A program made the position numbers and the translations under genes. A DNA stretch of 64,000 bases from Candidatus Kuenenia stuttgartensis (GTDB taxonomy: Bacteria; Planctomycetota; Planctomycetia; Pirellulales; UBA1268). The notes below the pieces were generated by a model. That model had not been told where the DNA came from and did not search any database. It worked only from the letters and a program-made list of their open reading frames with translations. The stretch spans positions 1-64,000 of the forward strand of contig CAMDDJ010000006.1 in the NCBI GenBank assembly GCA_945891385.1, in the 5' to 3' direction. Shown here piece by piece: positions 12,381-47,948 of the stretch; the stretch's first letter is position 1; each line of letters begins with the position of its first letter.

Positions 12381-12387
12381 TTTTAGC

Positions 12388-12418
12388 GCCCGCCGGGCCA
12401 TCCATGGCCCCGGCGGGC
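12388..12418 (+). terminator. Terminator-like hairpin at the head of repeat copy A
   Basis: GCCCGCCGGGCCAT pairs with ATGGCCCCGGCGGGC (one bulged base) eight bases after the kinase stop. The equivalent hairpins at 32842-32873 and 47353-47383 keep the pairing with different outer sequences (GCTCAGC/GCTGAGC in the last). No T-tract. Confidence 0.5.
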
Positions 12419-12671
12419 TTGCCGGGCCTCCGCCCGGCCGGCCGCCATCCGGGCGGCCGATCGCGTGCGGCCGCGGAGGAGTGGTGGCCCTGTCTGCGCG
12501 AATTGACGTCGAGGCGGGGCGACGCGGAGGGCACGCAGCGCGGGCTCCGCCCGCTGCGTGCCGGAGTGGAAGGCCGAGGAAGGGCTACCTGGGCGCACGC
12601 AGCGCGGGCTCCGCCCGCTGCGTGCCGGAGAGTTGGGGTGGCTTCGCGCATTCCCTCACCGCATTCGGGTC

Positions 12672-12831
12672 GGGGTTGCCCGTGCCCCGAGAGCCGGCGT
12701 ATGCAGACGAGCGCAGCCGACCAAGCCGCCTTCAGCGGCTCGGTGCCCGTTGCGGAGCGAAGTCTGCATCCGAGTGAGCGCAGGGCAGGATGCACGAAGC
12801 GAACGTCCGGCGACGGGGTATGGGCAACACC
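12672..12831 (+). ncRNA. Candidate structured RNA core, copy A
   Basis: Predicted fold by hand. Outer stem: 12675-12688 GTTGCCCGTGCCCC with 12815-12828 GGGGTATGGGCAAC, 14 pairs including two G-U. Nested stem: ATGCAGAC 12701-12708 with GTCTGCAT 12762-12769. Apical hairpin: AGCCGC-CTTCA-GCGGCT around 12724-12740. Side hairpin: GGGC-AGGAT-GCAC 12783-12795 (one mismatch). The linker AGCGAACGTCCGGCGAC is invariant in all copies. The two G-U pairs would be C-A mismatches on the other strand, so the plus strand is the likely RNA. Function unknown. Confidence 0.6.
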
Positions 12832-13080
12832 GCCCCACCAGTGGACGTCGCCTCCGCCCCTCCATACGCCCCGCCGGCGAACGTCCGGCGACGGGGCATG
12901 GGTAACACCGACCTCCCAGTGGACGTCACCTCCGCCCCGTCATACGCCCCGCCGGTGAACGTCCGGCAACGGGAATCCCCGCAATCCTGGGGGTCGGGGC
13001 CAGTTTTCCGATTGACGCGGCCGCGGCAGCCCCGGGAAAATCCAGGTGTTCTCCTCCAGACGCCCCGAGAGACCTCCCGC

Positions 13081-14052
13081 ATGGCCGCCGGATTGCATCG
13101 ACTGCCGCTCGAGAAGCCGATCTACGAGCTCGAGGATCGGATCGCCGCGTTGGAGGCGGCTCCGCTCGGAGGGCAGCAGCAGGAGGAACTTCGCCGGTTG
13201 CGTCGGGAACTGGTGGAGGTCCAGCGGGCAGTATTCGGCAACCTCGATCCCTGGCAAACGGTCGAGGTGTCGCGGCATCCCGACCGCCCGAAGACGAGCG
13301 ACTACCTGGCGCTCGTCTTTGACGAGTTCGTGGAACTCCACGGCGACCGGTCGTTCGGCGACGACCGGGCGATGCTGACCGGCTTCGCCAAACTCGACCA
13401 GCACAAGGTGATGGTGATCGGCCACCAGAAAGGTAAGACCCTCGCCGAACGGCAGGCCTGCCACTTCGGCTGCGCCCACCCCGAGGGCTACCGCAAGGCG
13501 ATGGGCAAGATGCGGCTGGCGGCGAAGTATGGCCTGCCGGTGATCTGCCTGATCGACACCCCGGGCGCCTATCCGGGCGTGGGGGCCGAGGAACGCGGGC
13601 AGGCCCAGGTCATCGCGGAGAGCATGTTTCTGATGGCCTCGTTGCCGGTGCCGATCGTCTGCGTAGTGATCGGGGAAGGGGGGTCGGGCGGCGCGCTTGG
13701 CATCGGCGTGGGTGACCGGGTGGCGATTCTGGAGCACGCCTACTACAGCGTGATCAGCCCCGAGGGCTGCGCCGGCATCCTGTGGAAGAGCGTGGAATAC
13801 AAGGCCGATGCCGCACGGGCGTTGCGATTCCGGTCCCGCGACCTGGAGCAGTTTGGCGTGGTCGATGCCGTGATCGAGGAGCCGGCCGGCGGAGCGCATC
13901 GGCACCCAGGGCAAATGGCGATGAGGCTCAAGACCTACCTCGGACGCACGCTCCGGGAACTCGTCGGCCGGCCCACCGACGAACTCGTGGCCGAGCGGTA
14001 CGGGAAGTTTCGCCGCATGGGCGCCTTCCTCGATGAGCCGCAACCCGCGTAG
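13081..14052 (+). CDS. accA: Acetyl-CoA carboxylase carboxyltransferase subunit alpha
   Basis: Transfers carboxyl from carboxybiotin to acetyl-CoA together with AccD, giving malonyl-CoA for fatty-acid synthesis. The 323-residue protein shows the AccA N-terminal helix LEKPIYELEDRIAALE, the HGDRSFGDDRAMLTG motif, CLIDTPGAYPGVGAEERGQ and the oxyanion-hole GEGGSGGALGIGVGD. The ATG at 13081 is chosen as the first start giving the family N-terminus; the open frame upstream runs into the intergenic repeat and is not real. accB, accC and accD are not in this window. Confidence 0.96.
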   Translation: MAAGLHRLPLEKPIYELEDRIAALEAAPLGGQQQEELRRLRRELVEVQRAVFGNLDPWQTVEVSRHPDRPKTSDYLALVFDEFVELHGDRSFGDDRAMLTGFAKLDQHKVMVIGHQKGKTLAERQACHFGCAHPEGYRKAMGKMRLAAKYGLPVICLIDTPGAYPGVGAEERGQAQVIAESMFLMASLPVPIVCVVIGEGGSGGALGIGVGDRVAILEHAYYSVISPEGCAGILWKSVEYKADAARALRFRSRDLEQFGVVDAVIEEPAGGAHRHPGQMAMRLKTYLGRTLRELVGRPTDELVAERYGKFRRMGAFLDEPQPA

Positions 14053-14091
14053 TCGAGGGAGACCCACCTGCCCACAAGCCGGTGCTATCCG

Positions 14092-14307
14092 TCACTCGGA
14101 CGTGCTCGAGCGATTTCGGCGGGAAACCCAGGCCGCGGCGCGGTTGAAGGCGACCGCAAGCAGGGCCGAGACAGCCGCGTACACGAGGGGCGTCGAACCG
14201 TAGGTGGCGTCCTTCGGGTTGAGCGCCACCATGACGAACAGGGCCGTTGCCGTGACGCTCGTCAGCGACAGGCCCGTCAGCGCGAGACTCCAAGCATCCG
14301 ATGTCAT
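14092..14307 (-). CDS. 71-residue two-span membrane protein ending the rhodopsin-carotenoid operon
   Basis: Starts inside the crtB stop (ATGA overlap), so it is probably translated from the rhodopsin-carotenoid operon as its last gene. Two hydrophobic helices, LTGLSLTSVTATALFVMVAL and LVYAAVSALLAVAFNRAAAW, flank a short NPKDATYGSTP loop; the tail is basic (VSRRNRSSTSE). I recognise no family. A role as a small partner of rhodopsin or of the membrane carotenoid enzymes is only a guess from position. Confidence 0.65.
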   Translation of the reverse strand: MTSDAWSLALTGLSLTSVTATALFVMVALNPKDATYGSTPLVYAAVSALLAVAFNRAAAWVSRRNRSSTSE

Positions 14308-15230
14308 GCAGAGACTCCGTGGGCCCGCAGCAGGCCATCCGCCGCGGTGAGTGCTTGCGTGGCGGCGTGATCGAGGTTCTGAGGAGCGCCGCGAGAGAAC
14401 GACGCCAGCAGCGAACGACCGCCGAGCGCCAGTTTCTCCCAGGTCGAAACCCGAACCCGGCCGGCCAGAACCTGGAAGCCGTTCTTCCTGATCTTGGTCC
14501 CGATCGCCCTGTAGACGCTCGCCGCCGTGCGAACAGCCAAGCGGGAACCTCCTTCCAGGGCACCGAGCCCCGCCTGGCCGGCACGATAGTAGCCTTCGGC
14601 CAGGTCGAGAATCCTGCTGACCCCGCGTTGCACACCCTCGGGGTCCGGCGGGAGGCTGCCCGGCCGCAATCCGCCGGTCCACTCGAGCGGCAGGTAGCAT
14701 CGCCCGCGCTGCCAATCTTCCGCCACGTCACGGGCGATGTTGGTCAGTTGCATCCCCATTCCGAGTGCAGCTGCATGGGGCAGAAAACGGCGATCCCGGA
14801 GGCCCAGTATCGGACACATCAGCACACCGACCGCTCCGGCCACTCGGAAGCAATATCGGAGCAGATCCACCTCGTTGAAATCGGCGGCCCGCCTGACGTC
14901 CGACCGCATGCCTGCGAGCAGAGCTTCGGCTGCGGCAAGGCTCAGATCATGCCGCTCGACAAGCGTGGCGAACCAGAGACTCTCAGGAGACTGCGGGTGG
15001 TCCCCGCGGCCAAGGAGCCGAAGATCGTGCGAGGCTCGGTCGACGAACTCGTCCGCAGCGCGGCTCGTCGGGGCGGTGTCGACGCCGTCGTCGCACCAGC
15101 GACACCAGGCGTAGAGCCGCTCGACGTCGGCCCGTTTGTCCGCCGGCAACAGCCGGCTGGCGAATGAAAAGGAGCGACTATGCCGCCGGATCGAGGCTCG
15201 GGCAGCCGGGCTGCTACGCGTGGACGACAT
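14304..15230 (-). CDS. crtB: Phytoene synthase
   Basis: Joins two geranylgeranyl diphosphates head to head into phytoene, the first committed carotenoid step. The 308-residue protein has the first aspartate-rich motif as WCRWCDDGVD and the second as QLTNIARDVAEDWQRGRCYLP, both needed for Mg-diphosphate binding, and the RYCFRVAGAVG helix. Its start lies 17 bases inside crtI. Fifth enzyme gene of the light-harvesting operon, between crtI and the small membrane protein. Confidence 0.95.
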   Translation of the reverse strand: MSSTRSSPAARASIRRHSRSFSFASRLLPADKRADVERLYAWCRWCDDGVDTAPTSRAADEFVDRASHDLRLLGRGDHPQSPESLWFATLVERHDLSLAAAEALLAGMRSDVRRAADFNEVDLLRYCFRVAGAVGVLMCPILGLRDRRFLPHAAALGMGMQLTNIARDVAEDWQRGRCYLPLEWTGGLRPGSLPPDPEGVQRGVSRILDLAEGYYRAGQAGLGALEGGSRLAVRTAASVYRAIGTKIRKNGFQVLAGRVRVSTWEKLALGGRSLLASFSRGAPQNLDHAATQALTAADGLLRAHGVSA

Positions 15231-16764
15231 GGAAATCCGCCGCGATCGTATCGCAGGTGGCCTTGGCCGAGTTGACGACGCCCGGCACGCCGGCTCCAGG
15301 ATGGGTGCCGGCTCCCACGAGGTAGAGCCCCGGAATCTCGGGGTCGCGATTGTGGGGCCGAAAGTAGGCGCTCTGCGTCAATGTCGGCGCGACCGAGAAA
15401 GCGGAACCCTGGTAGGCATTGAAGGTGCTGGCAAAGTCAGCGGGCGTGAAGTGACGCCGCGTGACGATCGAGTCGCGGAGTCCCGGGAGGTTGCGTTCGA
15501 GCGACTCGAGAATGGCGTCGCCATAGGCAGGACCGCAGGCCTCCCAGTCGATGGCGGCGTTTCCCAGGTGGGGCACCGGGCTCAGCACGTAGAACGACTC
15601 GCCTCCGGGGGGCGCCATGCCAGGGTCGGTAACCGTCGGAGCGTGCAGGTAGAGGCTGAAATCGTCCGGCAGACGGTGCCCGTGAAAGATGTCCCGGAGC
15701 AGCCCGCGGAACCGCGGACCGAACAGGATGGTGTGGTGCGCCAGGTGTTCGTATCGCCGGTTCGTGCCGAAGTAGAGCACGAACAACGACATCGACCAGG
15801 TCATCCGCTCCAGGCGTCGCTGCCGCCGATGGGCCGCGTCGAGTCCGCGATACAGTCTGGAATAGGTGTGGTGAACGTCGGCATTGGAGACGACGACGTC
15901 GAACGCTTCCGGCGGGCAGCCGGCGGCATGCACCACGTGCTGTGGCGTGCCTCCCTCCGACTGCAGCGTCACCCGATCGACCGCGGCTTTGAGCCGAAGC
16001 GTGCCGCCGAGGTCGTGGAACAGCCGCACGAGCCCGCGAACGAGCGCGCCGGTGCCACCCTCGGGAAACGATACGCCCCACTTCCGCTCGATCCAGTGGA
16101 TCAGCGTGTAGATGCTGCTCGTCTCGAGCGGGTTTCCACCGACGAGCAGCGGGTGAAAGCTGAAGGCCTGCCGCAGGTGCTCATCCCGCACGAATCGCGA
16201 GACCGTCGCGTAGACGCTTCGATCGGCCCGCAGGAGGGCCAAGTGCGGAGCAGCCCGAATCATGTCCGAGAAGTTCAGGAAAGGAACGGCGCCCAGCTCC
16301 TCGTAACCCTTCGCGAAGACGCGTCGCGAGTAGTCGGCGAACCGCCGATAGCCATCGACGTCGCGTGGACTCACTCGTCGCACCTGCTCAATCAGCCCCG
16401 GCTCGTCGGCGACGTAATCGAAGGTCACTCCATCGCTCCACTGCAGCCGGTAGAGCGGTGTCACCGGCAGCAGGCGGACGTAGTCGGACAAGCGACGGCC
16501 CGACAATTCGAAGAGTTCCTCCAGGCAGTGCGGAGCGGTGATGACCGTCGGCCCGGCATCGAACACATACCCCTGGTCTTCGTAGACGGAGGCCCGCCCG
16601 CCCGGCTTGTCGTGGGCCTCGTAGCAGACGGTATCGAAGCCCATCGACTGCAATCGGATGGCCGCTGCGAGCCCACCGAAACCGCTGCCGATCACGGCGG
16701 CTCGCCGCGGTGGTCGGCCCGCAGGCCGGCGGACGGGCGACTCTGGCATGGTCGCTGGGCTCAT
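15214..16764 (-). CDS. crtI: Phytoene desaturase (CrtI type)
   Basis: FAD-dependent desaturase converting phytoene to lycopene. The 516-residue protein has the dinucleotide-binding segment AAVIGSGFGGLAAAIRLQ, GGRASVYEDQGYVFDAGPTV, and the C-terminal GLYLVGAGTHPGAGVPGVVNSAKATC bacterial CrtI signature. I start at the ATG at 16764, whose ATGA overlaps the crtE stop, rather than 28 codons upstream. The number of desaturation steps cannot be read, but a cyclase in the same operon implies lycopene as product. Confidence 0.95.
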   Translation of the reverse strand: MSPATMPESPVRRPAGRPPRRAAVIGSGFGGLAAAIRLQSMGFDTVCYEAHDKPGGRASVYEDQGYVFDAGPTVITAPHCLEELFELSGRRLSDYVRLLPVTPLYRLQWSDGVTFDYVADEPGLIEQVRRVSPRDVDGYRRFADYSRRVFAKGYEELGAVPFLNFSDMIRAAPHLALLRADRSVYATVSRFVRDEHLRQAFSFHPLLVGGNPLETSSIYTLIHWIERKWGVSFPEGGTGALVRGLVRLFHDLGGTLRLKAAVDRVTLQSEGGTPQHVVHAAGCPPEAFDVVVSNADVHHTYSRLYRGLDAAHRRQRRLERMTWSMSLFVLYFGTNRRYEHLAHHTILFGPRFRGLLRDIFHGHRLPDDFSLYLHAPTVTDPGMAPPGGESFYVLSPVPHLGNAAIDWEACGPAYGDAILESLERNLPGLRDSIVTRRHFTPADFASTFNAYQGSAFSVAPTLTQSAYFRPHNRDPEIPGLYLVGAGTHPGAGVPGVVNSAKATCDTIAADFHVVHA

Positions 16765-17759
16765 CGCACGACCTCGGTCGCCGTCCGCTCGCCTGACAAG
16801 CGAAGCAAGCCGGCGACCTCCGCCAGGGGAGCCGCCCGGCGAACACACCCGGTCGCGACGGCGAGCCGGTGGGTCGCCCGGTCAAGCCGGGCGTGGATGG
16901 CGGCCGCGGCCCGGCCCACGCCGGCGTCGAGGAGATCGGCCGCGACTCCGCGGAGCAATCCGGGATCCTGTCCAGCCCGCGCGGCGCGACGCTGCAGTGC
17001 CGCAAACTGCGGCGGCGAGAGCTCGCCGGCAGCCCACGCCCAGGGCCAGGTCACCCGGCGGTTCCGCAGGTCGTCGCATCGCTCGGCTCCGTCGACGAAG
17101 TCGGCGAGTTCGTCCAGATCGTTGCGCATCTGCAGGCAGATCCCGACGCGACAGCCGAAGGCGGCGACGGCATGCAGCGTCGCGGGTTCCCCGGCGGCGG
17201 CGTGCGCCCCGCACCAGCCGGCCAGCGACACGAGCCGACCCGTCTTCCAACGGGAAATTGCCAGCACGGCGGCATACGTCTGCCGCGGGGTCACCTCGTC
17301 GATCCGCGTCGAGAGGTCGATCGCCTGGCCCTCGTGACATTGCCGGGCCACTTGGACGAACTGCGCCATGATCGCAGCGGACCGCGCGGGTTCGTCGTAG
17401 GCCGCGGCCGCGAGTTCCAGGGCCCTGAAATACATCCAGTTCCCCGCATTGACGGCCCGGGCCGCCCCGATCACCCGGTGGAGGGCCGGCTGGTCTCGCC
17501 GGGTCTGGGAATCGTCTTCGAAATCGTCGATCACGAGCGAGCCGGCGTGCAGCATCTCGACCGCGTCGATCACCAGGGCAGGGGCCTCAGCCTGGCCACC
17601 AGCCAATTCGTACGCCCGTTGGAGAAAGGTCGCCCGAAACCGCTTGCCGCCGATGCCCGGGTAGAGGTCAGGGGCGAGCTGGAGGGCCTTCGACCATCCG
17701 TGCCGTGTCTGCGACGTCTGGTGGAAGCGTCCGGCAAAACCGAGGGGATTCTTCATCAT
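16761..17759 (-). CDS. crtE: Polyprenyl (geranylgeranyl) diphosphate synthase
   Basis: Supplies geranylgeranyl diphosphate for carotenoid synthesis. The 332-residue protein has GGKRFRA near the N-terminus, the first aspartate-rich motif within LVIDDFEDDSQTRR, and a second as QMRNDLDELADFVDG, less canonical than DDxxD. The assignment to GGPP rather than another chain length comes from the operon context. It starts 13 bases after crtY and overlaps crtI by ATGA. Confidence 0.9.
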   Translation of the reverse strand: MMKNPLGFAGRFHQTSQTRHGWSKALQLAPDLYPGIGGKRFRATFLQRAYELAGGQAEAPALVIDAVEMLHAGSLVIDDFEDDSQTRRDQPALHRVIGAARAVNAGNWMYFRALELAAAAYDEPARSAAIMAQFVQVARQCHEGQAIDLSTRIDEVTPRQTYAAVLAISRWKTGRLVSLAGWCGAHAAAGEPATLHAVAAFGCRVGICLQMRNDLDELADFVDGAERCDDLRNRRVTWPWAWAAGELSPPQFAALQRRAARAGQDPGLLRGVAADLLDAGVGRAAAAIHARLDRATHRLAVATGCVRRAAPLAEVAGLLRLSGERTATEVVR

Positions 17760-17772
17760 GGCGTCACCGGAC

Positions 17773-18945
17773 CTAGGCGGAGAGGAACGACCTGGCGAAC
17801 CGGATCGGCGTCAGGCCGGTCGGCGGCCGACCGATGACGATCCGGGCCGCGTCACTGACGGTAAAACGATGGCCGTAAAACCGTGCGATTCGCTGCTCGG
17901 GCAGCACCCGATAGAACCGCTGGAAAACCTTCCAACGATCGGTCGGCGCGACGAGACAAAAGAGCAGCCGATTGAGCATCCGGGCGAACCCACGCCGCAA
18001 GGTCTCTTCCGACCCGGCCGCCGCGAGTTCGTCGGCGAGTCGCTCGGGCCTGGTACGGGCGACAAGTTCGGCGAATCGGATCGCCAACGGCATCGAATAG
18101 CCGGTGGCCGCGTGATACCAGCCGCCGGCATAGCCACCCGCAATCGACCGTCGGTCGCCGCGGTCCGCGCGGGCGTAGGGCATCGGCAGACAGCCCTGCT
18201 CAGTTCGCACGACCACCGCAGCGCCTCCTCCGGCATCCGAGAGCCTGGCCGCGATCAAATCCTCCGCCCGCTGCGGGTCACAACCGGAATCCTCGTGGAA
18301 GCGTGTGTATTCCAGCAGCACCCGATGGGGACCGAACGGGAGTTCGTAGAGAAACTCAAAGCCGTCGGCCTGGTCCTGGCGGACGTCCATCACGGTCGGC
18401 TCCGAGGCCGGCCAGCGGCGTTCGGTTTGGTATTCCCGGCCGATGAATGACTGGAATCCAACGCCTCGCGGCGGACCGCTGGACGCGGTGAGGCCCCGAC
18501 AATCGATTACCGCCCGGCAGCGCACAGGCTCGTTTCCGTCGATGATGACCTCCGTCGGCCCGGCGATGTCACAGGCCTCGCCGGTCCGCACGTCCAGGCA
18601 CGGCCGGCCGGCTGTATCCAGGCTGACGGCGGCCAGCGACAGCGTCTCGTTCCGGAGGCGGTCGGAGGTGATCGTGGCGTAGGGAAGCTCGACCCGCCGC
18701 GACAATCCCGGAAACCTCACGAGGTATCCCGGCCACCGATGCGCGACGAGCGGGTCGAACCAGTTCCTCGCCTCTGGGGGCACGTCCGACTCGTGAAACG
18801 ACCAGGTGTGGTTGCCGCAGAGTTCATCCGCCTTCTCGACGAGCAGCATGCGGGCGGCCGGCCGATGATGGGCCACGGCGTGTGCCAGCAGACAGCCCTG
18901 CAGCCCACCGCCGACGATCACGTAGTCGAAGGTGTCCGCAACCAT
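17773..18945 (-). CDS. crtY: Lycopene beta-cyclase (CrtY type)
   Basis: Cyclises both ends of lycopene to beta-carotene. The 390-residue flavoprotein starts with the Rossmann motif YVIVGGGLQGCLLAHAV, then DELCGNHTWSFHESD, a VIDCRGL segment, FEFLYELPFGPHRVLLEYTRF and GGYAGGWYHAATGYSMPLA, all typical of CrtY. The start at 18945 overlaps the blh stop (TGATG) and gives the Rossmann fold right at the N-terminus. Its product is the substrate of the next gene product, Blh. Confidence 0.94.
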   Translation of the reverse strand: MVADTFDYVIVGGGLQGCLLAHAVAHHRPAARMLLVEKADELCGNHTWSFHESDVPPEARNWFDPLVAHRWPGYLVRFPGLSRRVELPYATITSDRLRNETLSLAAVSLDTAGRPCLDVRTGEACDIAGPTEVIIDGNEPVRCRAVIDCRGLTASSGPPRGVGFQSFIGREYQTERRWPASEPTVMDVRQDQADGFEFLYELPFGPHRVLLEYTRFHEDSGCDPQRAEDLIAARLSDAGGGAAVVVRTEQGCLPMPYARADRGDRRSIAGGYAGGWYHAATGYSMPLAIRFAELVARTRPERLADELAAAGSEETLRRGFARMLNRLLFCLVAPTDRWKVFQRFYRVLPEQRIARFYGHRFTVSDAARIVIGRPPTGLTPIRFARSFLSA

Positions 18946-19907
18946 CAGGTGGCACTCCCGAAACGGAGGTGCCGCGCGGCACGGCGATCGGCGATCGGGG
19001 CCAGAAACGGCGCAACCCCATGGACCACGAGGTGCGGAACCGCGACGGCACTGAGGCCGACGAAGGTCGCCCTGATCAGGGTCTCGTTCCAGCCAGTTGT
19101 TCGCAGCACGCCAAACGTCGCCAGGGCGATCAACCCAACGGCCCCCAGAGTCATCGGGGCCAGGCTGGCGGCGAGGCGGATCCAACGCTCGCCCAGTTCA
19201 CGCCGTAGTTTCCTCAGGCCGCGGACCGAGTGCCAGCCGCAGAAATAGACGAGAAAGCCCACCAAGGGATTGGCGATGGCAAGCAAGGCCACGAGCGAAG
19301 CGACCAACAGGACATCGCCGAGCAACACCCGCTGCGTCCGCCCCCGCCGACCAAGGGCAACACGCAGTTCGAGAAACCAGCCAACCGCGGCGACTCCCAT
19401 CATCAGGGCCGAAAAGGCTGCGAGCGGACCGGCGAACCGCTGCACGTCGGGCCCGAGGCCGCCCGGAGTCGCCACCGCCAGAATCCCGACGACCTGGTCG
19501 GTCTGCATCACCAGCGGCGTCCAAATCACGAGCCCTCCTCGCGCGAATCGCAACAGCGGCCGCCAACTCCGGGGCCCCACCGCGAACCGCGGTTCCTCCT
19601 GGCCGAAATGCCAGGCCGATGCCAGAAAAAACCCACCGATGGTGGCAGCCGGGGCGAGAAACCAGCCCCCAACCATGACCGCTGCGGCCAGCAGATAGCC
19701 CGCCAGAAACAGCGGGAGCCAGGCCGGACCGAAGAGCGGCTCGAGCCGAGGCCTGAGGAACCGATGATCCGCCGCCCCGTGAGGCAGCCCGAGACCCGCG
19801 ACGAGCACGGCCAGAATGCCGGCCGTCGCGCGGCCTCCGGCGGAAGGAACGAAGCACGCGGCCCCGATCAGCGCCCAACTGAGCAGCGTGACAGAGGCCG
19901 CGTGCAT
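18945..19907 (-). CDS. blh: Beta-carotene 15,15'-dioxygenase (Brp/Blh family)
   Basis: Membrane iron enzyme that cleaves beta-carotene into two retinals, the chromophore of rhodopsin. The 320-residue protein has several hydrophobic spans and the conserved metal-binding histidines: GLPHGAADH, ASAWHFGQEE, YFCGWHSVRG and VPHLVVHGV. It lies between the rhodopsin gene (31 bases upstream) and crtY (1-base overlap), the standard arrangement for retinal supply. Confidence 0.93.
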   Translation of the reverse strand: MHAASVTLLSWALIGAACFVPSAGGRATAGILAVLVAGLGLPHGAADHRFLRPRLEPLFGPAWLPLFLAGYLLAAAVMVGGWFLAPAATIGGFFLASAWHFGQEEPRFAVGPRSWRPLLRFARGGLVIWTPLVMQTDQVVGILAVATPGGLGPDVQRFAGPLAAFSALMMGVAAVGWFLELRVALGRRGRTQRVLLGDVLLVASLVALLAIANPLVGFLVYFCGWHSVRGLRKLRRELGERWIRLAASLAPMTLGAVGLIALATFGVLRTTGWNETLIRATFVGLSAVAVPHLVVHGVAPFLAPIADRRAARHLRFGSAT

Positions 19908-19938
19908 GAACTGTTCCTCCTCACCGACACGGAGCCGA

Positions 19939-23274: not shown

Positions 23275-23342
23275 CGGCCCGCTTGGGGTCGGGCCGGTCC
23301 CGAGGTACATTCCGGGTTTCCACGCCTTTCTTCCCTTCCGCA

Positions 23343-24281: not shown

Positions 24282-24299
24282 GAGCCTGATCGCGGCCGG

Positions 24300-24860: not shown

Positions 24861-24954
24861 GGACTGGCATTCATGTTCCGACGAACGGGATGGCTCCGGA
24901 GTTTTATAGCCGCAGCCGCCCCGGCCGACACCCGCAGAGCCCGGCGGGCGGCAT

Positions 24955-27565: not shown

Positions 27566-27615
27566 GCCCGCCTGCATCATCAGGCTCCTGATTCACCCGG
27601 AACGCGAGGGATTCC

Positions 27616-32834: not shown

Positions 32835-33031
32835 GTTGAGCGCCCGGCGGGCCATTCCATGGCCCCGGCGGGCTTGCCGGGCCTCCGCCCGGCCGGCCGC
32901 CATCCAGGCGGCCGATGGCGTGCGGCCGGCGCGGGGTGGTGGGCCGTTCTGCGCGGATTGGCGTCGAGGCTGGGCGATCCGGATGGCACGCGGCGCGGGC
33001 TGCGCCCGCTGCGTGCCTGAGAGTGCCGCCC

Positions 33032-33059
33032 GCATTCCGCATTCCGCATTCCGCATTCG
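33032..33059 (+). repeat. Heptamer microsatellite (GCATTCC)n
   Basis: Three GCATTCC units and one GCATTCG unit in tandem inside repeat copy B. Copy A shows only scattered CGCATTC sequences at this place, so the expansion is local. Confidence 0.85.
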
Positions 33060-33146
33060 GCAGGCTGCATGACTGCGGCTACAGGCCAATGGGTACCCGG
33101 GCCCAACAAGCACTTCAACGAGCACTTCGAAACGGATTGCGAGGGC

Positions 33147-33278
33147 GGGGTTGCCCGTGCCCCGGAGCCGGCGTAGGAAACCGAGCGGAGCAAGGATTGC
33201 GAAGCGAAGGTTTCCTCCGAGTGAGCGCAGGGCAGGATGCCCGCAGCGAACGTCCGGCGACGGGGCACGGGCAACACC
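33147..33278 (+). ncRNA. Candidate structured RNA core, copy B
   Basis: The best-formed copy. Outer stem: 33150-33163 GTTGCCCGTGCCCC with 33262-33275 GGGGCACGGGCAAC, 14 perfect pairs. Nested stem: AGGAAACC 33175-33182 with GGTTTCCT 33209-33216, perfect but unlike copy A in sequence. Apical hairpin GCAA-GGA-TTGC. Side hairpin GGGC-AGGAT-GCCC at 33230-33242, perfect. Same invariant linker AGCGAACGTCCGGCGAC as in the other copies. Confidence 0.65.
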
Positions 33279-33459
33279 GACCCACCAGGGAACGCTGCGT
33301 CCGCCCCTCCATGCGGTAGCGAACGTCCGGCGACGGGGCACGGGCAACACCGACCCACCAGTTGACGCTGCCTCCGCCCCTGCGGTGGCGCCGTTTTTCA
33401 CGCACGGCCACCCGCCGTCAGAGTGCCGCCTACAATGGCGGCATCCCGGAGCCGAACCT

Positions 33460-34887: not shown

Positions 34888-34890
34888 GCC

Positions 34891-40000: not shown

Positions 40001-40109
40001 TGGATACTCCCCGCGGCTTCAGGCTCTACTCTTCCCCAGTGAACCACCCGGCCGCGCCGCCGGCAAGCAACCGTTTGCCGGAGCCGGTCACCGCCCAGGA
40101 GCTCGCAGG

Positions 40110-40754
40110 ATGGAATCGAGGGCTACACACGCTCGGAAAGAGTATGAACGAGGCGCGCTCGACGAGACCACGGCAGACCACGACCCGGTTCGCCAGTTCT
40201 CCCGCTGGTACGACGAGGCCGTGGCGGCGGGGATTTCCGAGCCGGAAGCGATGACGCTCTCGACGGTCGCCGCCGATGGGCGGCCTTCGGCACGAGTCGT
40301 CTTATTGCGCAACTTCGACACGCGTGGCTTTTGCTTCTTCACCAATTACGAGAGCCGCAAGGGCCGGGAACTCAGCGTCAATCCGTGGGCGGCATTGACG
40401 TTTCACTGGGCCGATCTCGAGCGGCAGGTGCGGATCGAAGGCCGTGTTGCCCGAACCTCGGCGGCCGAGTCCGACGCCTACTTCGCCAGCCGCCCGAGCA
40501 GTTCGCGGATCGGCGCCTGGAGCTCGCCTCAGAGCGAGGTAATCGCGGGCCGCGAGGTGCTCGAAGAACTCTTTACCAGGCAGCGTGAGGCCTTTCCCGA
40601 CGACACGCTGATCCCGCGGCCGGAGCATTGGGGTGGCTTCCGCCTCGAGCCCGACCGGATCGAGTTCTGGCAGGGCCGACCAAGCCGACTCCACGACCGG
40701 CTTGTCTATCGCCGTGACAGCGATTGCTGGAAGACTGCACGGCTGGCTCCGTGA
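40110..40754 (+). CDS. pdxH: Pyridoxamine/pyridoxine 5'-phosphate oxidase
   Basis: FMN enzyme making pyridoxal 5'-phosphate in vitamin B6 salvage and synthesis. The 214-residue protein follows the PdxH pattern: [46 protein letters not shown] with FMN-binding Arg, [51 protein letters not shown] and the C-terminal [11 protein letters not shown]...WKTARLAP. The ATG at 40110 has AGGAG eight bases upstream. Divergent from the exoprotein gene, with 109 bases between starts. Confidence 0.95.
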
Positions 40755-40805
40755 ATCACCCTCAGTGGCAGCGCGGCCCGATCGCCTGGGTGCCGGCGGC
40801 ATGCC

Positions 40806-41144
40806 TTACGACCGACGCTCCCTCCAGAGCATGCCGCACGACACGCCGAGGCCCGCGGCGGCGAGCGTGACGAGCGACCACTGCGGCACGATTCGGCCCG
40901 GGGCCGCCGCGTTTCGCTCCACCGCTGTCTCGGCGAGATCGACCGGGGCAAGGCCCGCCCCGCGACGCGCACGCTCCACGGCCGCCTGCTCGCGACCCAA
41001 GAACCGTCCCTCGAGTTGACGCTGCCGCCAATCCCACTTGGGGCCGATCACCGCGAGGCCTAGCAGGGCCATGAACGCGAAGCAGGCCGCCCAAAACCAG
41101 CCGCTATCCGTCAACGGGGGCTTGGGGCCCGAAGTAGCCGTCAT
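40806..41144 (-). CDS. Small two-span membrane protein
   Basis: 112 residues with membrane helices at about 15-33 (GWFWAACFAFMALLGLAVIG) and 88-105 (WSLVTLAAAGLGVSCGML), separated by a basic/acidic loop (DWRQRQLEGRFLGREQAAVE). Family not recognised. Divergent from sufR across a 66-base promoter region; convergent with pdxH. Confidence 0.6.
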   Translation of the reverse strand: MTATSGPKPPLTDSGWFWAACFAFMALLGLAVIGPKWDWRQRQLEGRFLGREQAAVERARRGAGLAPVDLAETAVERNAAAPGRIVPQWSLVTLAAAGLGVSCGMLWRERRS

Positions 41145-41175
41145 GGCGATGCTCCCCGATTTTGCTCACATGAAA

Positions 41176-41204
41176 TTGTCAAAAACCCGGCTCGGCTATA
41201 TAGT
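41176..41204 (+). promoter_or_regulatory. Consensus-like promoter of the suf locus
   Basis: TTGTCA, 17 bases, TATAGT. The -10 ends only six bases before the sufR ATG at 41211, so transcription would start at or next to the start codon, giving a leaderless sufR mRNA. AAGGG lies too close to the ATG for a normal ribosome site. The only textbook-like promoter I found in the window. Confidence 0.6.
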
Positions 41205-41210
41205 AAGGGT

Positions 41211-41873
41211 ATGAGCCGGCCTGAAGAACATCCAGAACCGCGGTCGACGGACTCCGCCGTCATCGAGTTGCTGCGACTGCAACCGGCCCTCGAGGTCGGT
41301 GAACTCGCCACCGGCCTGGGAGTGACGGCGACCGCCGTGCGTCAGCGGCTCGAGCGACTGATGGGAGCCGGACTCGTCGAGCGGGTCACGGTGGCGAAAC
41401 CCCGAGGCAGGCCCTCCCATTCCTACAGCCTCACGGCCGCCGGCAGGCGGGTGGGCGGAGACAACTTCAAGGACCTGGCGGTCGCCCTCTGGCGGGAGGT
41501 ACGCGGTATTCGTGATCCCGCCATCCGCACCGGCCTGCTGGCCCGGATTGGCTCTGCAATGGCCGACCGGTACCGAGACCGGGTCACGGGACAGGCCGCC
41601 GGCGACCGGATGGAGAGTATTGCTGCCGTGCTTCGGGAGCGGGATATCAGCTGCTCCGTGGAGCACTCCCCACTCCCGGTGTTGGTCACCCGTTCCTGCC
41701 CCTTCCCCGACCTTGCCGAGGAAGATCGCGGGATCTGTGCGGCCGAACGACTCATGCTTCAGGAACTGGTCGGGAGTCCCGTCCAGTTGACCGACTGCCG
41801 GCTCGATGGCGGCACCGCCTGCCTGTTCGTGGCCAACACGGACTGCCGCGGGGCTTGCACGCCCGAGGGTTAA
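41211..41873 (+). CDS. sufR: SufR-like Fe-S-sensing transcriptional regulator
   Basis: 220-residue regulator. An N-terminal winged helix-turn-helix (ELATGLGVTATAVRQRLERL, then GRPSHSYSLTAAGRR) is followed by a dimer/effector domain with cysteines spaced C-x12-C-x19-C-x7-C (SCPFPD, GICAAE, TDCRLD, TACLFV), suited to an Fe-S cluster as in SufR repressors. It heads the suf locus on the same strand, so autoregulation and repression of suf genes when clusters are abundant is the likely job. A further CRGAC sits near the end. Confidence 0.88.
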   Translation: MSRPEEHPEPRSTDSAVIELLRLQPALEVGELATGLGVTATAVRQRLERLMGAGLVERVTVAKPRGRPSHSYSLTAAGRRVGGDNFKDLAVALWREVRGIRDPAIRTGLLARIGSAMADRYRDRVTGQAAGDRMESIAAVLRERDISCSVEHSPLPVLVTRSCPFPDLAEEDRGICAAERLMLQELVGSPVQLTDCRLDGGTACLFVANTDCRGACTPEG

Positions 41874-41948
41874 CGCGTCGAATGCCGCACGGTTGATCGA
41901 AAAAACACCCGCTTTACAAGTCTCTCGCCTCATCACCGGAGCCCTTCC

Positions 41949-42599
41949 ATGCCCGTCACCACCCTGCAGCAGCCCACCGTTCCTCATGCCACGGGCGGCC
42001 GCCCGTGGATCGAAGGACGGTTCGAGGAGAACCTGGTACTGACGACGGTCGAACAGGCGATCAACTGGGCGCGGCAGTCGAGCATCTGGCCGATGACATT
42101 CGGACTGGCCTGCTGTGCGATCGAGATGATGGCCGCTGGGGCGAGTCGCTACGACCTCGACCGATTCGGAGCAGGTGCGTTCCGGGCGACGCCCCGCCAG
42201 GCAGACCTGATGATCGTGGCCGGCACCGTCACCTACAAGATGGCCAGCCGGGTGCGACGGCTTTACAACCTGATGCCCGACCCCAAGTTCGTCATCGCCA
42301 TGGGCGCCTGCACCACCGGCGGTGGGCCCTACTTCAAATGGGGCTATCACGTGGTCAAGGGCGTCGATCTCGTGGTGCCGGTCGACGTCTATGTACCTGG
42401 ATGCCCGCCGCGCCCCGAGAGCCTGCTCGAGGGGCTGATGCGGATTCAGGACAAGATCCTCGGCCAGCGAATCGCCAAGCGGAAGGATGGTCTGGGCAAG
42501 ATGGCCGATGAATTGCCGGTGCCGCATCACTCGGGCTACGTCGCACCGGCCGTCGCCGGCGACGACCTGGTATTCGACCATCAGAAACTCACGGGCTGA
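41949..42599 (+). CDS. nuoB: NADH-quinone oxidoreductase subunit B (stray NuoB)
   Basis: 216-residue complex I subunit that holds the terminal [4Fe-4S] cluster N2. The ligands are visible: adjacent cysteines in [11 protein letters not shown], one in [10 protein letters not shown] and one in [10 protein letters not shown]. The rest ([35 protein letters not shown]) is standard NuoB. The C-terminal extension after [11 protein letters not shown] is ~45 residues. What is odd is the location: between sufR and sufC, with no other nuo gene in the window. Confidence 0.93.
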
Positions 42600-42652
42600 G
42601 CCACCACGCCCCTCCCGCCAACCACCCCCACCGATTGCAGGAACCCGCCAGC

Positions 42653-43501
42653 ATGAGCCAGTTGCCCGACCGAATCGTCATCAAAAACCTCCACGTCAGC
42701 GTCGACGGCCAGGAGATTCTGCGCGGGGTCGATCTCGAGATTGGCCGCGGCGAAACCCACGCGCTGATGGGCCCCAACGGCTCAGGCAAGAGCACGCTTG
42801 GGTACGCGATCATGGGCCATCCCGGGTACGACGTGACCGAAGGTTCGATCGAGATCGTCGACGCCGACGGCACCCGTCATGACGTGCTCGCCATGGAACC
42901 CGACGAGCGGGCACGGCAGGGGATCTTCCTTGCGTTCCAGCGGCCCATGGCGATTCCAGGCGTTCGGTTGGCCGAGTTCCTCCGCCACGCGGTCACCAAC
43001 GTCCGTAACCCCGACCGCAAGGAGGGGGAAGACCTGATGCCGATGAAGGAGTTTCGCGGCGAACTCAAGGCGAAGATGGCCGAACTCTCGATCGATTCCG
43101 AGTTTGCCCGGCGGTATGTCAACGACGGGTTCTCGGGCGGCGAAATGAAGCGGGCCGAGATTCTGCAGTTGGCCATGCTCCAGCCACGGTTTGCGATCCT
43201 CGACGAGACCGACAGCGGCCTCGACGCCGACGCCGTCCGCCTGGCAAGTCAGAGCATCGCCCGTATCGGTGGTGACCAGATGGGCATCCTGATCATCACG
43301 CATCATGAGCAGTTGTTGGAGCACAACGTGCCGCTGCGGACGCACGTGATGCTCGGTGGCCGGATCGTCGAGTCAGGCGGGCCGGAACTGGCGGCCGAAC
43401 TGCACAAGCGTGGCTACGAGCGGATCCGAGCGGCCTATCCGGATGCCGCTGCGGCCGAACGGGCGCTCGAGGATTCCAAGGCCGAAGCGGCGACCGCCTG
43501 A
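42653..43501 (+). CDS. sufC: Fe-S cluster assembly ATPase SufC
   Basis: ABC-type ATPase of the SufBCD scaffold. The 282-residue protein has Walker [17 protein letters not shown], the SufC-specific [18 protein letters not shown] signature, Walker [13 protein letters not shown] and H-loop ITHHEQLLE. The ATG at 42653 is chosen over an upstream in-frame start six codons earlier, as it gives the usual N-terminus; a weak AGGA lies 12 bases upstream. The C-terminus is slightly extended ([20 protein letters not shown]). Confidence 0.96.
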
Positions 43502-43548
43502 CGGCGGTTCTACCAACACACTCACGATCTGGAACGAAGGAGACCGCG

Positions 43549-44961
43549 ATGGCGACAGGACTGGAAGGCTCGACGACCGAAGCGCTCGGCGAGATCAACA
43601 AATACGACTTTCGGACCGACTCCCCGGCCGTGTTCAAGGCGCGCAAGGGGGTCGATGCAGAGATCGTCGCCCAGATTTCCGACATGAAGGGTGAGCCTGC
43701 CTGGATGCGGGACTTCCGCCTCGAGTCGCTCGCCATCTTCGATGCCAAGCCGATGCCCTCGTGGGGCGGCCGGATCGGCGTGGATTTCCAAGACATCTTT
43801 TACTACCTCAAGCCCGCCGAGCATCAGGGCAAGACGTGGGAGGAAGTGCCCGACGCCATCAAGCAGACCTTCGACCGGCTCGGGATCCCGGAGGCCGAGA
43901 GAAAGTTTCTGGCGGGCGTGAAGGCGCAGTTCGAGAGCGAGGTCGTCTACGGCTCGCTCCAGGAGGATCTCGCCAAAAAGGGCGTGATCTTCACCGACAC
44001 CGACACGGCGGTCCGCGAGCATCCCGACCTTTTGCGGGAATATTTCGGCACGATCATCCCTCCGTCTGACAACAAGTTCGCCGCCCTCAATTCTGCCGTC
44101 TGGTCGGGTGGTTCCTTCATTTACGTTCCCAAGGGCGTCTCGATCGAGTTTCCGCTCCAGGCCTACTTTCGGATCAATGCCGAAAGCATGGGGCAGTTCG
44201 AGCGGACACTGATCATCGTCGACGAGGGAGCCCAGGTGCATTACGTCGAGGGCTGCACGGCCCCGATGTATTCGACCGAAAGCCTCCACTCGGCCGTCGT
44301 GGAAATCGTCGTCAAGAAGCACGGCCGGTGCCGCTACACGACGATCCAAAACTGGGCCAACAACATCTACAACCTCGTCACCAAGCGGGCCATGGCCTAC
44401 GAGGGTGCCCTGATGGAGTGGATCGACGGCAACCTCGGCAGCCACCTGACGATGAAATATCCCGCCGTGTACCTGATGGAACCGGGGGCCAGAGGTGAAA
44501 TTCTTTCGATCGCCTTCGCCTCGGCCGGTCAGCACCAGGACGCCGGCGCGAAGATCGTGCATGCCGCTCCCAACACCAGCGGACGCATCGTTTCCAAGAG
44601 CATCTCGAAGAACGGTGGACGGGCCAGCTACCGGGGCCTTGTCAAGGTCGAGCCGGGGGCGGTGAAGAGCAAGTCGAGCGTCGTCTGCGACGCCCTGATC
44701 CTCGACGATCGAAGCCGGAGCGACACCTATCCCTACATCGAAATTGAGGAGCAGGATGTCTCGATCGGCCACGAGGCAAGCGTCTCGAAGATCGGCGAAG
44801 AACAGCTCTTCTACCTGATGAGCCGAGGTCTTTCCGAAGCAGAGGCCAGCGCGATGATCGTGGGGGGCTTCATCGAGCCGCTCGTGAGAGAGCTGCCGAT
44901 GGAGTATGCCGTCGAGATGAACAAGCTCATCCAACTCCAGATGGAAGGCTCGGTGGGCTGA
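43549..44961 (+). CDS. sufB: Fe-S cluster scaffold protein SufB
   Basis: 470-residue scaffold subunit on which clusters are built with SufC and SufD. Key segments: [77 protein letters not shown], and [12 protein letters not shown], whose cysteine aligns with the essential Cys of Escherichia coli SufB. The end is the family motif [11 protein letters not shown]. Strong ribosome site GAAGGAG seven bases before the ATG. Confidence 0.97.
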
Positions 44962-45017
44962 GTTCGCCCTGCCGCTGCCTCGCATCCCCGCCTCACCACC
45001 GCCCGCCCCATCCAGCC

Positions 45018-46400
45018 ATGACCATCGCCCCTGTCTCCGCTCTTTCGGCCTTCGACACCGAGACCTTCGAAGCACTTCTCGCCGGAACTCATGAACCCGC
45101 GTGGGCGGCAGCGAGCCGCCGCCGTGCCTTCGACCGTTTCCAGGGCCTCGGACTGCCGAGTCGTCGCAGCGAGAACTGGATGCGGACCGATATCCGGGCG
45201 TTTCGGCCCGGAGCCTGGGGCCTGCGTCCGGCCCCGGAATCCCTAGACCCGCCCGCCGGACTTCTCTCGGCGGCGATCGAGGCGGGTGACGGGGCGGTCG
45301 AGTGCTTTCCCGAGGAATCCTGCCAATTCGGGAGTGAAGGGCGATTCTGTGGCCGCTTCGCATCGCTCGATGGGCATGTGATTCGGACGGAACTGGATCC
45401 CGAAGTAGTTTCGCAGGGCGTTCGTTTTGGACCTGCCGCGGAAGTCCTTGCCGAACTGACAAGCGAACTGGAGCCCTGGTGGTTCTCGGTCATCGACGGT
45501 GGTTGCGACTGGTTCGCCGCGCTCCATGCCGCCTTCCACCGGGCGAGCGCCGTTCTTTACGTGCCTCCTGGGGTCAGACTCGGCGACCCGCTCCATGTGA
45601 TGGCCGCAATCTCGTCCGGGGGCGTGGACACCTCGCACCTTCTCGTCGTTGTCGGGGCAGGTGCGGAAGCGACGCTCCTGACCGAGACGGCCGGCGGCGG
45701 CCCGACCGGGTCAGCCGGTGGCTTCCATTGTGGCGGCACGGAGATCGTGGTGGGCCGTGGTGGCTTTCTCAGGCTTGTGAATCTTCAGAATTGGAACACC
45801 GGGGTCTGGCACTTCGCCCGGCAAAAGGCGGTGGTGCAGGAGCAGGGCCGACTGCAATGGACGCTCGGAGCCCTCGGCAGCCGGCTCTCCCAGGTCGCAC
45901 AAGACGTGGCCCTCGTCGGCCGTGGCGCCGAGGCCCAGGTGAACGGCGTGATGTTTACCGAAGGCCGACAGCATCTGGTCTACAACACGCTCCAACATCA
46001 CGAAGCGCCGGGGTGCAGGAGCGATCTCCTTTATAAGGGAGCCTTGCAGGACCGCTCGCGGCTCGTCTGGCGGGGCATGATCAAGGTCGACAAAGCAGCG
46101 CAGAAAACTGACGGCTATCAGCGGAACGACAATCTGATGCTCTCGAAGGAGTCCCGGGCCGACTCGATCCCAGGGCTCGAGATCGAAGCCGATGATGTTC
46201 GCTGTACCCACGGCGCGACCAGCGGCCGCGTGGACGCCGAGCAGATCTTCTACGCACAGGCCCGGGGACTCACGGCCGACGAAGCGGCCCGGCTCGTTGT
46301 GGCGGGCTTCTTTCAGCAGGTCTTCGATCGGATCACGATTCCCGCGGTGCGGGAGGCTCTGGCCCGCGCCGTGTGTAGCCGCATCCGGCGGATCGCATGA
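45018..46400 (+). CDS. sufD: Fe-S cluster assembly protein SufD
   Basis: 460-residue paralogue of SufB that completes the SufBC2D complex. The N-terminus has GLPSRRSENWMRTD; the beta-helix core includes LYVPPGVRLGDPLHVMA, LVNLQNWNTGVWHFARQKA and LVWRGMIKVDKAAQKTDGYQ. The DDVRCTHGATSGRVDAEQIFY segment holds the conserved His/Cys pair at the SufB-SufD interface. Starts 56 bases after sufB with no strong ribosome site. Confidence 0.95.
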   Translation: MTIAPVSALSAFDTETFEALLAGTHEPAWAAASRRRAFDRFQGLGLPSRRSENWMRTDIRAFRPGAWGLRPAPESLDPPAGLLSAAIEAGDGAVECFPEESCQFGSEGRFCGRFASLDGHVIRTELDPEVVSQGVRFGPAAEVLAELTSELEPWWFSVIDGGCDWFAALHAAFHRASAVLYVPPGVRLGDPLHVMAAISSGGVDTSHLLVVVGAGAEATLLTETAGGGPTGSAGGFHCGGTEIVVGRGGFLRLVNLQNWNTGVWHFARQKAVVQEQGRLQWTLGALGSRLSQVAQDVALVGRGAEAQVNGVMFTEGRQHLVYNTLQHHEAPGCRSDLLYKGALQDRSRLVWRGMIKVDKAAQKTDGYQRNDNLMLSKESRADSIPGLEIEADDVRCTHGATSGRVDAEQIFYAQARGLTADEAARLVVAGFFQQVFDRITIPAVREALARAVCSRIRRIA

Positions 46401-46555
46401 CTGCCGGACCGATCACTGCCCCACAAAGGCCGGCGGCTGGAGCCCGCCGCCAAGACGGAGCCTGGTCGCACGTTCGTCGTCGACCGAGTCGGAAGAGTTC
46501 GAGCCTGAGAATGTGACCGCGGCCGCGAGGCCACAATGAGATAGGAGAGTGCCGA

Positions 46556-47320
46556 GTGCAGGGCTTTACACGGGTAATCGAGGTCGACGAGGTGCCGGAT
46601 CCCGGCAAGACGCTCGTGGAGGTCGAAGGCGAGATGATCGCGCTGTTTCACGTCGGCGACGCGTGGTACGCCCTGGACGATGTCTGCACGCACGATGGCG
46701 GTCCGCTGGCCGACGGTGAGCTCCGAGACCACAAGATTTCCTGCCCGCGGCACGGAGCTAAGTTCGACATTCGCACCGGTGCCGCCCTGACGATGCCGGC
46801 GGTGCGACCCACCCGCAGCCATGAGACGGCGGTGCAGGACGGCGGCGTGTGGGTTCGACTCCGGGCAGCACCGCTCGACCAGGGTCCCGGAGCCCTCGGA
46901 CAACCGACGAGCATCCCCTCGCAGACCGCTCCTGCGGTGGCGGCGGCAGCACAGGAAGCCGTGACGACGAGCCGCTCCCCCTCTCCTGCCCCGACCGGGC
47001 CCCTCTGCGAAGAAACAGCCCGAGAGATTCTCAAAGAGGTCAAGGATCCCGAACTCTTCGTGAACATCGTCGATCTCGGGCTCATCTACGGCGTCACGAT
47101 CACTCCGGCCGAAGACGATGCGGCGAAACATCACGTCGCCATCGACATGACGATGACGAGCCCCGCCTGCCCCGCCGGGCCGCAGTTGATCGCTGACACC
47201 AAACGCGCGCTCGGCCAGCGGCCTGACGTCGCGGCCGTGGAGGTACGCATCGTGATGGACCCCCCCTGGACTCCCGACCGTATGACCGAAGCCGCCCGCG
47301 ACCAGCTCGGCATATTCTAG
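46556..47320 (+). CDS. Rieske ferredoxin fused to MIP18/SufT-type domain
   Basis: 254-residue fusion. Residues 1-105 form a Rieske [2Fe-2S] ferredoxin: FHVGDAWYALDDVCTHDGGP and HKISCPRHGAKFDIRTG give the C-x-H...C-x-x-H ligands. A Pro/Ser/Ala linker (~105-148) joins a MIP18 (DUF59) domain: AREILKEVKDPELFVNIVDL, GLIYGV, TMTSPACPAGPQLI, VEVRIVMDPPWTPDRMTE, as in SufT/PaaD-type Fe-S maturation factors. Start is a GTG at 46556 behind AGGAGAG. Last gene of the suf locus; a cluster-transfer or redox role in Fe-S protein maturation is inferred. Confidence 0.88.
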   Translation: MQGFTRVIEVDEVPDPGKTLVEVEGEMIALFHVGDAWYALDDVCTHDGGPLADGELRDHKISCPRHGAKFDIRTGAALTMPAVRPTRSHETAVQDGGVWVRLRAAPLDQGPGALGQPTSIPSQTAPAVAAAAQEAVTTSRSPSPAPTGPLCEETAREILKEVKDPELFVNIVDLGLIYGVTITPAEDDAAKHHVAIDMTMTSPACPAGPQLIADTKRALGQRPDVAAVEVRIVMDPPWTPDRMTEAARDQLGIF

Positions 47321-47494
47321 TTTGAGCGCTCAGCGGGCCATGCTGTTTGAGCGCTCAGCGGGCCATCCCTGGCCCCGCTGAGCTCGCCGGGCCTCCGCCC
47401 GGCCGGCCGCCGTCCAGGCGGCCGATGACGTGCGGCCCGCGCGGTGTGGTGGCCCGTTCTGAGCGGATTGACGTCGAGGCGGGGCGACGCGGCT

Positions 47495-47646
47495 GGCACG
47501 CGGCGCGAGCCTGCGGCTCGCTGCGTGCCTGAGGGTGGAGAGCCGACGCGGCTGGCACGCGGCGCGAGCCTGCGGCTCGCTGCGTGCCTGAGGGTGGAGA
47601 GTCGACGGGGCGGCACGCGGCGCGAGCCTGCGGCTCGCTGCTTGCC
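47495..47646 (+). repeat. Three tandem ~59-bp hairpin units inside copy C
   Basis: Units at 47495, 47554 and 47612, each starting GGCACGCGGCGCGAGC and closing CGGCTCGCTGCGTGCC (last unit CTTGCC). In copy A the equivalent stem is GGGC/GCCC where here it is GAGC/GCTC, so pairing is kept while sequence changes. Copy A has two units, copy B one. Confidence 0.85.
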
Positions 47647-47716
47647 TGAGCGGGGAGAGCCGACGGAGCTCGGGGAGTCGGGGCGGCCTCGGGCACTGCA
47701 AAACGGCATGCGGGTC

Positions 47717-47848
47717 GGGGTTGCCCGAGCCCCACGATCCGGCCTAGGAAACCAGCGAAGCCATGGATGGCGGAGCGCCGTTTCCTCGGAGTGAGCGAAG
47801 CCCAGGATGGGCGCAGCGAACGTCCGGCGACGGGGCACGGGCAATCCC
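47717..47848 (+). ncRNA. Candidate structured RNA core, copy C
   Basis: Outer stem: 47720-47733 GTTGCCCGAGCCCC with 47832-47845 GGGGCACGGGCAAT, one A-A mismatch and one G-U. Nested stem: AGGAAAC 47746-47752 with GTTTCCT 47780-47786. Apical hairpin GCCAT-GG-ATGGC. Side hairpin GCCC-AGGAT-GGGC 47800-47812: both strands are swapped relative to copy B, with the AGGAT loop unchanged. Same AGCGAACGTCCGGCGAC linker. Confidence 0.6.
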
Positions 47849-47948
47849 GACCTACCAGCGGACATCGCGTCCGGCCCTTCATCCGCCAGCCACCATCCGG
47901 AGACGGGCCAGCCATTGACCCCGGCGGGGCGAGCGGTAGCCTGCGGGC

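What the first reader, a model, noticed from the sequence alone, without database searches (positions are those of the whole stretch)
12386..47890. A long modular repeat family, three copies in 64 kb, always 3' of a plus-strand gene
Seen directly: repeats near 12386-12980, 32838-33395 and 47324-47890 share module order (head hairpin, two GC hairpins, GGCACGC hairpin unit, folded core, GCGAACGTCCGGCGACGGGG unit) but differ in module copy number. All three face the same way and follow the stop codon of a plus-strand gene (kinase, deoC, Rieske-MIP18). No reading frame is conserved. Their density suggests dozens to hundreds per genome. I know of no described family with this architecture.
Basis: seen in the sequence. 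Interest (0 to 1): 0.88.

Follow-up and report, generated by a model that had tools for sequence, protein, structure and literature searches.

The report
Mobile structured repeats behind planctomycete genes
An uncultured planctomycete carries about a hundred copies of a short, strongly folded, apparently mobile repeat that sits between genes, mostly just behind one, and that was found only in its own bacterial family among the genomes searched and fits no known RNA family.

Summary
The three copies are real, lie in the stated order and orientation, and belong to a genome-wide family: 104 core matches in this 3.77 Mb genome (93 span the whole model) and 127 in a sister genome. It is a mosaic of separable units rather than one long repeat. 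The heart is a ~138-nt core: a 21-pair closing stem around two arms, with changes on both sides at 29 of 45 pairs. No Rfam family reaches its threshold in the window. The core alone was gained at one site: it lies 3' of a Ham1-family gene in one genome, with no core there in 20 others of the genus. It occurs in 63 of 72 genomes of the bacterial family; an order-wide sample matched only that family. Copies lie between genes (119 of 123 overlap none); 78 of 101 follow a same-strand gene, so 'always' is too strong. Best reading: a non-autonomous MITE/BOX-like mobile element acting through a folded plus strand, still constrained after insertion. No mobilising enzyme was found; PF01797 was the only transposase family searched genome-wide. 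New variant of a known kind.

The parts
12382..12475 (+). copy 1 head: three GC hairpins, one base after the kinase stop codon
12530..12562 (+). copy 1 GGCACGC hairpin unit, first
   Evidence: read from sequence
12592..12626 (+). copy 1 GGCACGC hairpin unit, second
   Evidence: read from sequence
12669..12834 (+). copy 1 folded core, arm 1 carrying an extra insert
   Evidence: 113.5 bits
12798..12938 (+). copy 1 tail: two 73-78-nt units beginning GCGAACGTCCGGCGACGGGG, the first overlapping the core's 3' side; a degenerate third follows
32836..32930 (+). copy 2 head, one base after the deoC stop codon
32985..33017 (+). copy 2 GGCACGC hairpin unit (one)
   Evidence: read from sequence
33144..33281 (+). 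copy 2 folded core; MFE -87 kcal/mol, z -8.38
33245..33381 (+). copy 2 tail, two units, the first overlapping the core's 3' side
47322..47346 (+). copy 3 half-head directly after the Rieske/FeS-assembly stop codon
   Evidence: read from sequence
47347..47440 (+). copy 3 full head
47495..47646 (+). copy 3 GGCACGC hairpin unit in three tandem copies (47495-47529, 47554-47588, 47612-47646)
   Evidence: read from sequence
47714..47851 (+). copy 3 folded core
   Evidence: 145 bits
47815..47878 (+). copy 3 tail, one unit, overlapping the core's 3' side

Best explanation
A family of small non-autonomous mobile elements (MITE/BOX-like), found in one planctomycete family. The mobile heart is the ~138-nt core, whose 21-pair closing stem sits where terminal inverted repeats would and whose plus strand folds into a two-armed structure. 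Shown: copy number, fold with covariation, plus-strand bias of G-U pairs, intergenic and mostly 3'-of-gene location, one site where the core was gained. Inferred: an enzyme supplied in trans recognises the folded plus strand (ssDNA or RNA) and inserts copies; insertions survive mainly behind stop codons, where they do little harm and become part of the 3' UTR. Head, GGCACGC and tail units are further repeat units that nested beside the core and now partly travel with it as a composite.
For: Copies: 104 core matches here, with 150 of 4,927 candidates scored; 127 in sister G046, one of them an antisense echo, with 150 of 4,339 scored. Distribution: 63 of 72 family genomes, 11 of 12 genera; order-wide sample 59 of 296, every match in the same family. 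Mobility: at L324/L378 both flanks align and the core is missing in G054; the place 3' of the same Ham1-family gene has no core in 20 of 20 other genomes of the genus for which a locus was obtained, 18 of which keep the downstream neighbour, so G046 most simply gained it. Of 19 G046 sites traced in G054: 11 shared (two of them, L339 and L344, cut by contig ends), 1 partial, 1 stem-only remnant, 4 without a core although both flanks align, 2 without alignment beyond the site. Fold: 97.6% of cells paired and 29 of 45 pairs with changes on both sides, reached by 0 of 500 shuffles; slid controls 33.0-42.3%. In loci from relatives 98.3% (A3). RNA z-score -8.38. Strand: closing stem G-T 148 cells against A-C 13 over A2-A4. 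Location: 119 of 123 chains overlap no called gene and 4 overlap by under 10%; 78 of 101 follow a same-strand gene.
Against: No mobilising enzyme found: PF01797 has no match in this 93.9%-complete genome, and other transposase families were not searched. A scan of fetched own loci for closing-stem halves far apart listed 12 left halves with a right half 330-4000 nt away; these were not inspected one by one. No evident target-site duplication, and the 3' end at the clean site is ambiguous by some 10-20 nt. Only one site is polarised; at the other three core-less sites the sister genome holds other sequence in the gap. Constraint after insertion is more than a pure parasite needs: cores exceed their adjacent 80-nt flanks in identity in 8 of 10 orthologous pairs. 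Arm 1 shows no G-T cell and no one-sided kept change among 432 cells, 13 being mismatches, which templated palindrome repair or cassette exchange could explain as well as selection. No transcription data.
Confidence: 0.62

Rival explanations
1. A 3'-UTR regulatory or protective RNA that works where it sits (transcript end, mRNA stability, a protein- or RNase-binding site), spread long ago and kept by selection at each gene.
For: Plus-strand G-U bias; 3'-of-gene bias; heads start within -5 to 10 nt of a same-strand stop in 18 of 35 chains; orthologous cores more identical than adjacent flanks in 8 of 10 pairs, and than the wider flanks in 7 of 10, with 14 double-sided and 7 one-sided kept pair changes against 13 broken; a GGA tip in both arms of most copies.
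Against: Positions are not stable: 4 of 19 sites lack a core in the sister genome and 1 is reduced to its stem; two shared orthologues have lost arm sequence in G054. 23 of 101 chains do not follow a same-strand gene. deoC is followed by a plus-strand core here, but the cores near deoC in genus relatives are on the opposite strand.
Confidence: 0.2
2. A REP-like element moved by an IS200/IS605-type tyrosine transposase acting on ssDNA hairpins; the bulged head hairpin beside a stop codon would be the left end.
For: Bulged head hairpin with both-sided changes at 8 of 20 predicted pairs; stops before heads are enriched in TAG, 10 of 24 against 81 of 468 genes in the loci, p = 0.004.
Against: No PF01797 match in this genome; no GTAG or CGTC at a fixed place in the 12 nt before 26 heads (read); the core was gained without a head, and 30 G046 core loci gave no head match.
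Confidence: 0.1
3. An omega-RNA-like guide RNA (TnpB/IscB type) carried by element remnants.
For: Mobile and structured. That HEARO RNAs are also multi-copy and mobile is recalled, not from a call.
Against: No HEARO hit in the Rfam scans, relaxed ones included. Not tested: TnpB/IscB families were not searched, and neighbouring genes were not annotated apart from those.
Confidence: 0.06

Closest known systems
BOX elements of Streptococcus pneumoniae (PMC3049150, passages read)
   Same: Modular interspersed repeat with a variable number of a middle module; predicted to fold as RNA; thought non-autonomous and parasitic; over-represented between convergent genes
   Different: No sequence comparison made; here a two-armed covarying core that also occurs and inserts alone, and other units
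ERIC/IRU and other bacterial MITEs (PMC2229807, abstract and ERIC section read)
   Same: Small repeat (ERIC 127 bp), counted among non-autonomous mobile elements; ERIC is co-transcribed with neighbouring genes
   Different: Enterobacterial; sequences not compared; transcription of the present element not known
REP palindromes, GTAG and CGTC families (PMC3733652, passages read)
   Same: High copy, mainly downstream of coding regions, often grouped, reported in Planctomycetes among others
   Different: REPs are 20-40 bp single hairpins with a terminal tag; here ~138 nt with two arms, no fixed tag before the heads, no PF01797 transposase in the genome

Membership tests
MITE | short, non-coding, inverted repeats at the ends | tested here: met
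   ~138 nt, no conserved frame; closing stem of 21 pairs
MITE | insertion polymorphism | tested here: met
   L324 against L378 and 19 other genomes of the genus; one polarised site
MITE | exact ends and target-site duplication | tested here: inconclusive
   left end sharp, right end ambiguous by 10-20 nt, no duplication evident
MITE | matching autonomous element or transposase | tested here: inconclusive
   none recognised, far pairs not inspected singly; only PF01797 searched genome-wide
REP/RAYT elements | tyrosine (Y1) transposase in the genome | tested here: not met
   no PF01797 match in a 93.9%-complete assembly
REP/RAYT elements | GTAG or CGTC tag beside a hairpin | tested here: not met
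   no fixed tag in the 12 nt before 26 heads, read; core ends not tested
BOX elements | variable number of a middle module | tested here: met
   GGCACGC unit 2, 1 and 3 copies in the window (read)
BOX elements | boxA/boxC sequence homology | not tested
   not compared
Any Rfam family, HEARO included | covariance-model match at the family's threshold | tested here: not met
   0 in the window; relaxed scan of copy 1: three hits far below threshold, E 0.89-4; relaxed scan of 7 loci: one tRNA only

The most novel reading that the evidence does not exclude
A lineage-specific mobile structured RNA: the transcript of the core is itself the moving or recognised molecule, arms are swapped between copies as fully paired cassettes, and inserted copies keep a job at mRNA 3' ends, so that about a hundred transcripts per genome share one structured 3' UTR.
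Probability: 0.2. Interest if true: 0.82.

Novelty: new variant of a known kind. Interest (0 to 1): 0.62.

Why it matters
It is one of the more elaborate folds I know of for a bacterial interspersed repeat (recalled, not searched), present in 11 of 12 genera of one planctomycete family and in no sampled genome of the order outside it. It gives a tractable case for asking whether folded bacterial repeats are kept for mobility or for a job at mRNA ends.

Tried and rejected
Known RNA family: none at threshold in the window. A relaxed scan of copy 1 gave mir-718, RsmW (other strand) and CRISPR-DR20 at E 0.89-4, 27-36 bits... that is, far below their thresholds, and taken as chance. A relaxed scan of seven loci gave one tRNA, in L345. 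Y1 transposase PF01797: no match. Autonomous element flanked by closing-stem halves: nothing recognised, far pairs not inspected singly. Phages and plasmids (blastn with 256 bases of copy 2) and viral contigs (one exact 29-letter pattern): no match. Segmental duplication: rejected, copies lie in many gene contexts. Coding: rejected. Literature: six searches found no description of this family; 'not described' rests on those alone. PMC2864571 was seen in the search listing only.

Limits: the match counts are affected by candidate caps and by contigs that break inside the repeats; two partial matches at contig ends may be halves of one copy. A3 and A4 are fitted to the model; A4 holds two antisense rows (L181 +, L182 +), kept in the counts. 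Gene calls come from my own codon-usage caller. Identities leave gap columns out.

Full report
What is there. The three window copies (12382-12938, 32836-33381, 47322-47878) share head, GGCACGC unit(s), core and tail in that order, with 2, 1 and 3 GGCACGC units (read) and differing tail number. The window is G000:C6:1-64000 of a 3.77 Mb, 150-contig assembly. Of the ten named relatives of its deoC protein at 71-81% identity, nine carry a planctomycete name and one is 'bacterium'.

Extent. A covariance model of the core (R1: 48 copies, 137 positions, 45 pairs) finds 104 matches in this genome with 150 of 4,927 candidates scored; 93 span the whole model and 11 are partial. G046 has 127, one an antisense echo and four partial, with 150 of 4,339 scored. 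In the bacterial family 63 of 72 genomes and 11 of 12 genera match. An order-wide sample gave 59 of 296, all in the same family; 7 further family genomes are listed without a match, and the remaining 230 (13 listed, 217 not) are taken from the row order to be other families. Stricter filters and 11 scored candidates per genome apply there. No match in phages, plasmids or viral contigs, within narrow queries.

Fold. Closing stem GGGGTTGCCCGTGCCCC / GGGGCAYGGGCAAYCCC plus an inner GCCGG/CCGGC, then two arms, each with a symmetric C-GNA-G / C-GNA-G loop and, in most copies, a GGA tip. On A2, 97.6% of cells pair and 29 of 45 pairs show changes on both sides; none of 500 shuffles reaches this, and slid controls give 33.0-42.3% paired. 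A3, from loci of relatives: 98.3% and 29 pairs; A4, the rest of this genome plus G046: 95.4% and 33 pairs; both are fitted to the model. RNA z-score of the copy-2 core -8.38; of its 560-nt composite -3.05. Over A2-A4 the closing stem has 148 G-T against 13 A-C cells; the arms 31 against 12. This favours a folded plus strand, RNA or ssDNA. Arm 1 comes as a few complete types (AGGAAAC/GTTTCCT in 22 of 48, ATGCAGA/TCTGCAT in 7 of 48, the rest fewer, one a mismatched chimera) and has 419 Watson-Crick, 0 G-T and 13 mismatched cells, so cassette exchange or templated palindrome correction may add to the covariation. The head covaries too: 8 of 20 predicted pairs with both-sided changes in 26 heads.

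Location. 123 element chains were assembled in the fetched own loci. 119 overlap no called gene and 4 overlap by under 10%. 101 have a called upstream gene: same strand 78, opposite 23. With both neighbours called (83): same/same 32, same/opposite 29, opposite/opposite 12, opposite/same 10. The 35 head chains start within -5 to 10 nt of a same-strand stop in 18 and within 30 nt in 24; TAG stops are enriched there (10 of 24 against 81 of 468 genes, p = 0.004).

Mobility. 21 G046 flanks (of 30 core loci in hand) were sought in sister G054; 19 were found. At these: 11 shared (two cut by contig ends), 1 partial (L334), 1 stem-only remnant (L342), 4 without a core although both flanks align (L324, L346, L348, L338), 2 without alignment beyond the site (L330, L332). 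Only L324 is a clean core-sized gap; at L346, L348 and L338 the G054 interval holds other sequence. The L324 core follows a Ham1-family gene (PF01725). Loci of that gene from 20 of the 21 other genomes of the genus hold no core; 18 of the 20 keep the downstream neighbour, L392 and L396 do not show it. So the core was most simply gained in G046. No head was matched in the 30 G046 core loci, so the core lives without it. Elsewhere a core in G046 stands where G054 has a MazG-like gene, so not every difference is a simple insertion.

After insertion. Ten orthologous pairs were compared: 9 of the 11 shared sites (the two cut by contig ends left out) and the deoC-side pair L349/L350. The core is more identical than its adjacent 80-nt flanks in 8 (exceptions L337, L336) and than the wider flanks in 7. 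Pair changes: 14 both-sided and kept, 7 one-sided and kept, 13 broken, 37 pairs not comparable because of gaps. Two G054 copies have lost arm sequence (L369, L371). So constraint or homogenisation continues, with decay in some copies.

Reading. The pattern fits a MITE/BOX-like mobile element better than a fixed regulatory RNA, but a job in place is not excluded. The enzyme is unknown: genome-wide, only PF01797 was tested.

Noticed in passing
L096:8025, 8125, 11090 and others; L324:758-846: A second dispersed palindromic repeat of ~80 nt (GGCTCGGGG ... CCCCGAGCC). Its 14-mer GCGAGGATACGCCC at <=2 mismatches has 45 hits in own loci, at least three of the twelve printed being chance-like; the repeat recurs in many genomes of the genus.
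   Followed up: partly
window 47322-47346; upstream of the heads in L143 and L100: Half-heads followed by a full head, as if heads insert into, or slip within, heads.
   Followed up: no
L349:1452-1663 against L350:360-795: A core in G046 stands where G054 has a reverse-strand MazG-like gene (PF12643).
   Followed up: partly
contig ends of G000, e.g. starts of C26, C49, C60, C73: Contigs begin or end inside these repeats, so copy numbers from this assembly are uncertain.
   Followed up: no
L205-L211: A diverged core subfamily with another closing stem (GGGGCTGCCGGTGTCCTC ... GAGGATGCCGGCAGCCCC) and no tail unit seen.
   Followed up: partly
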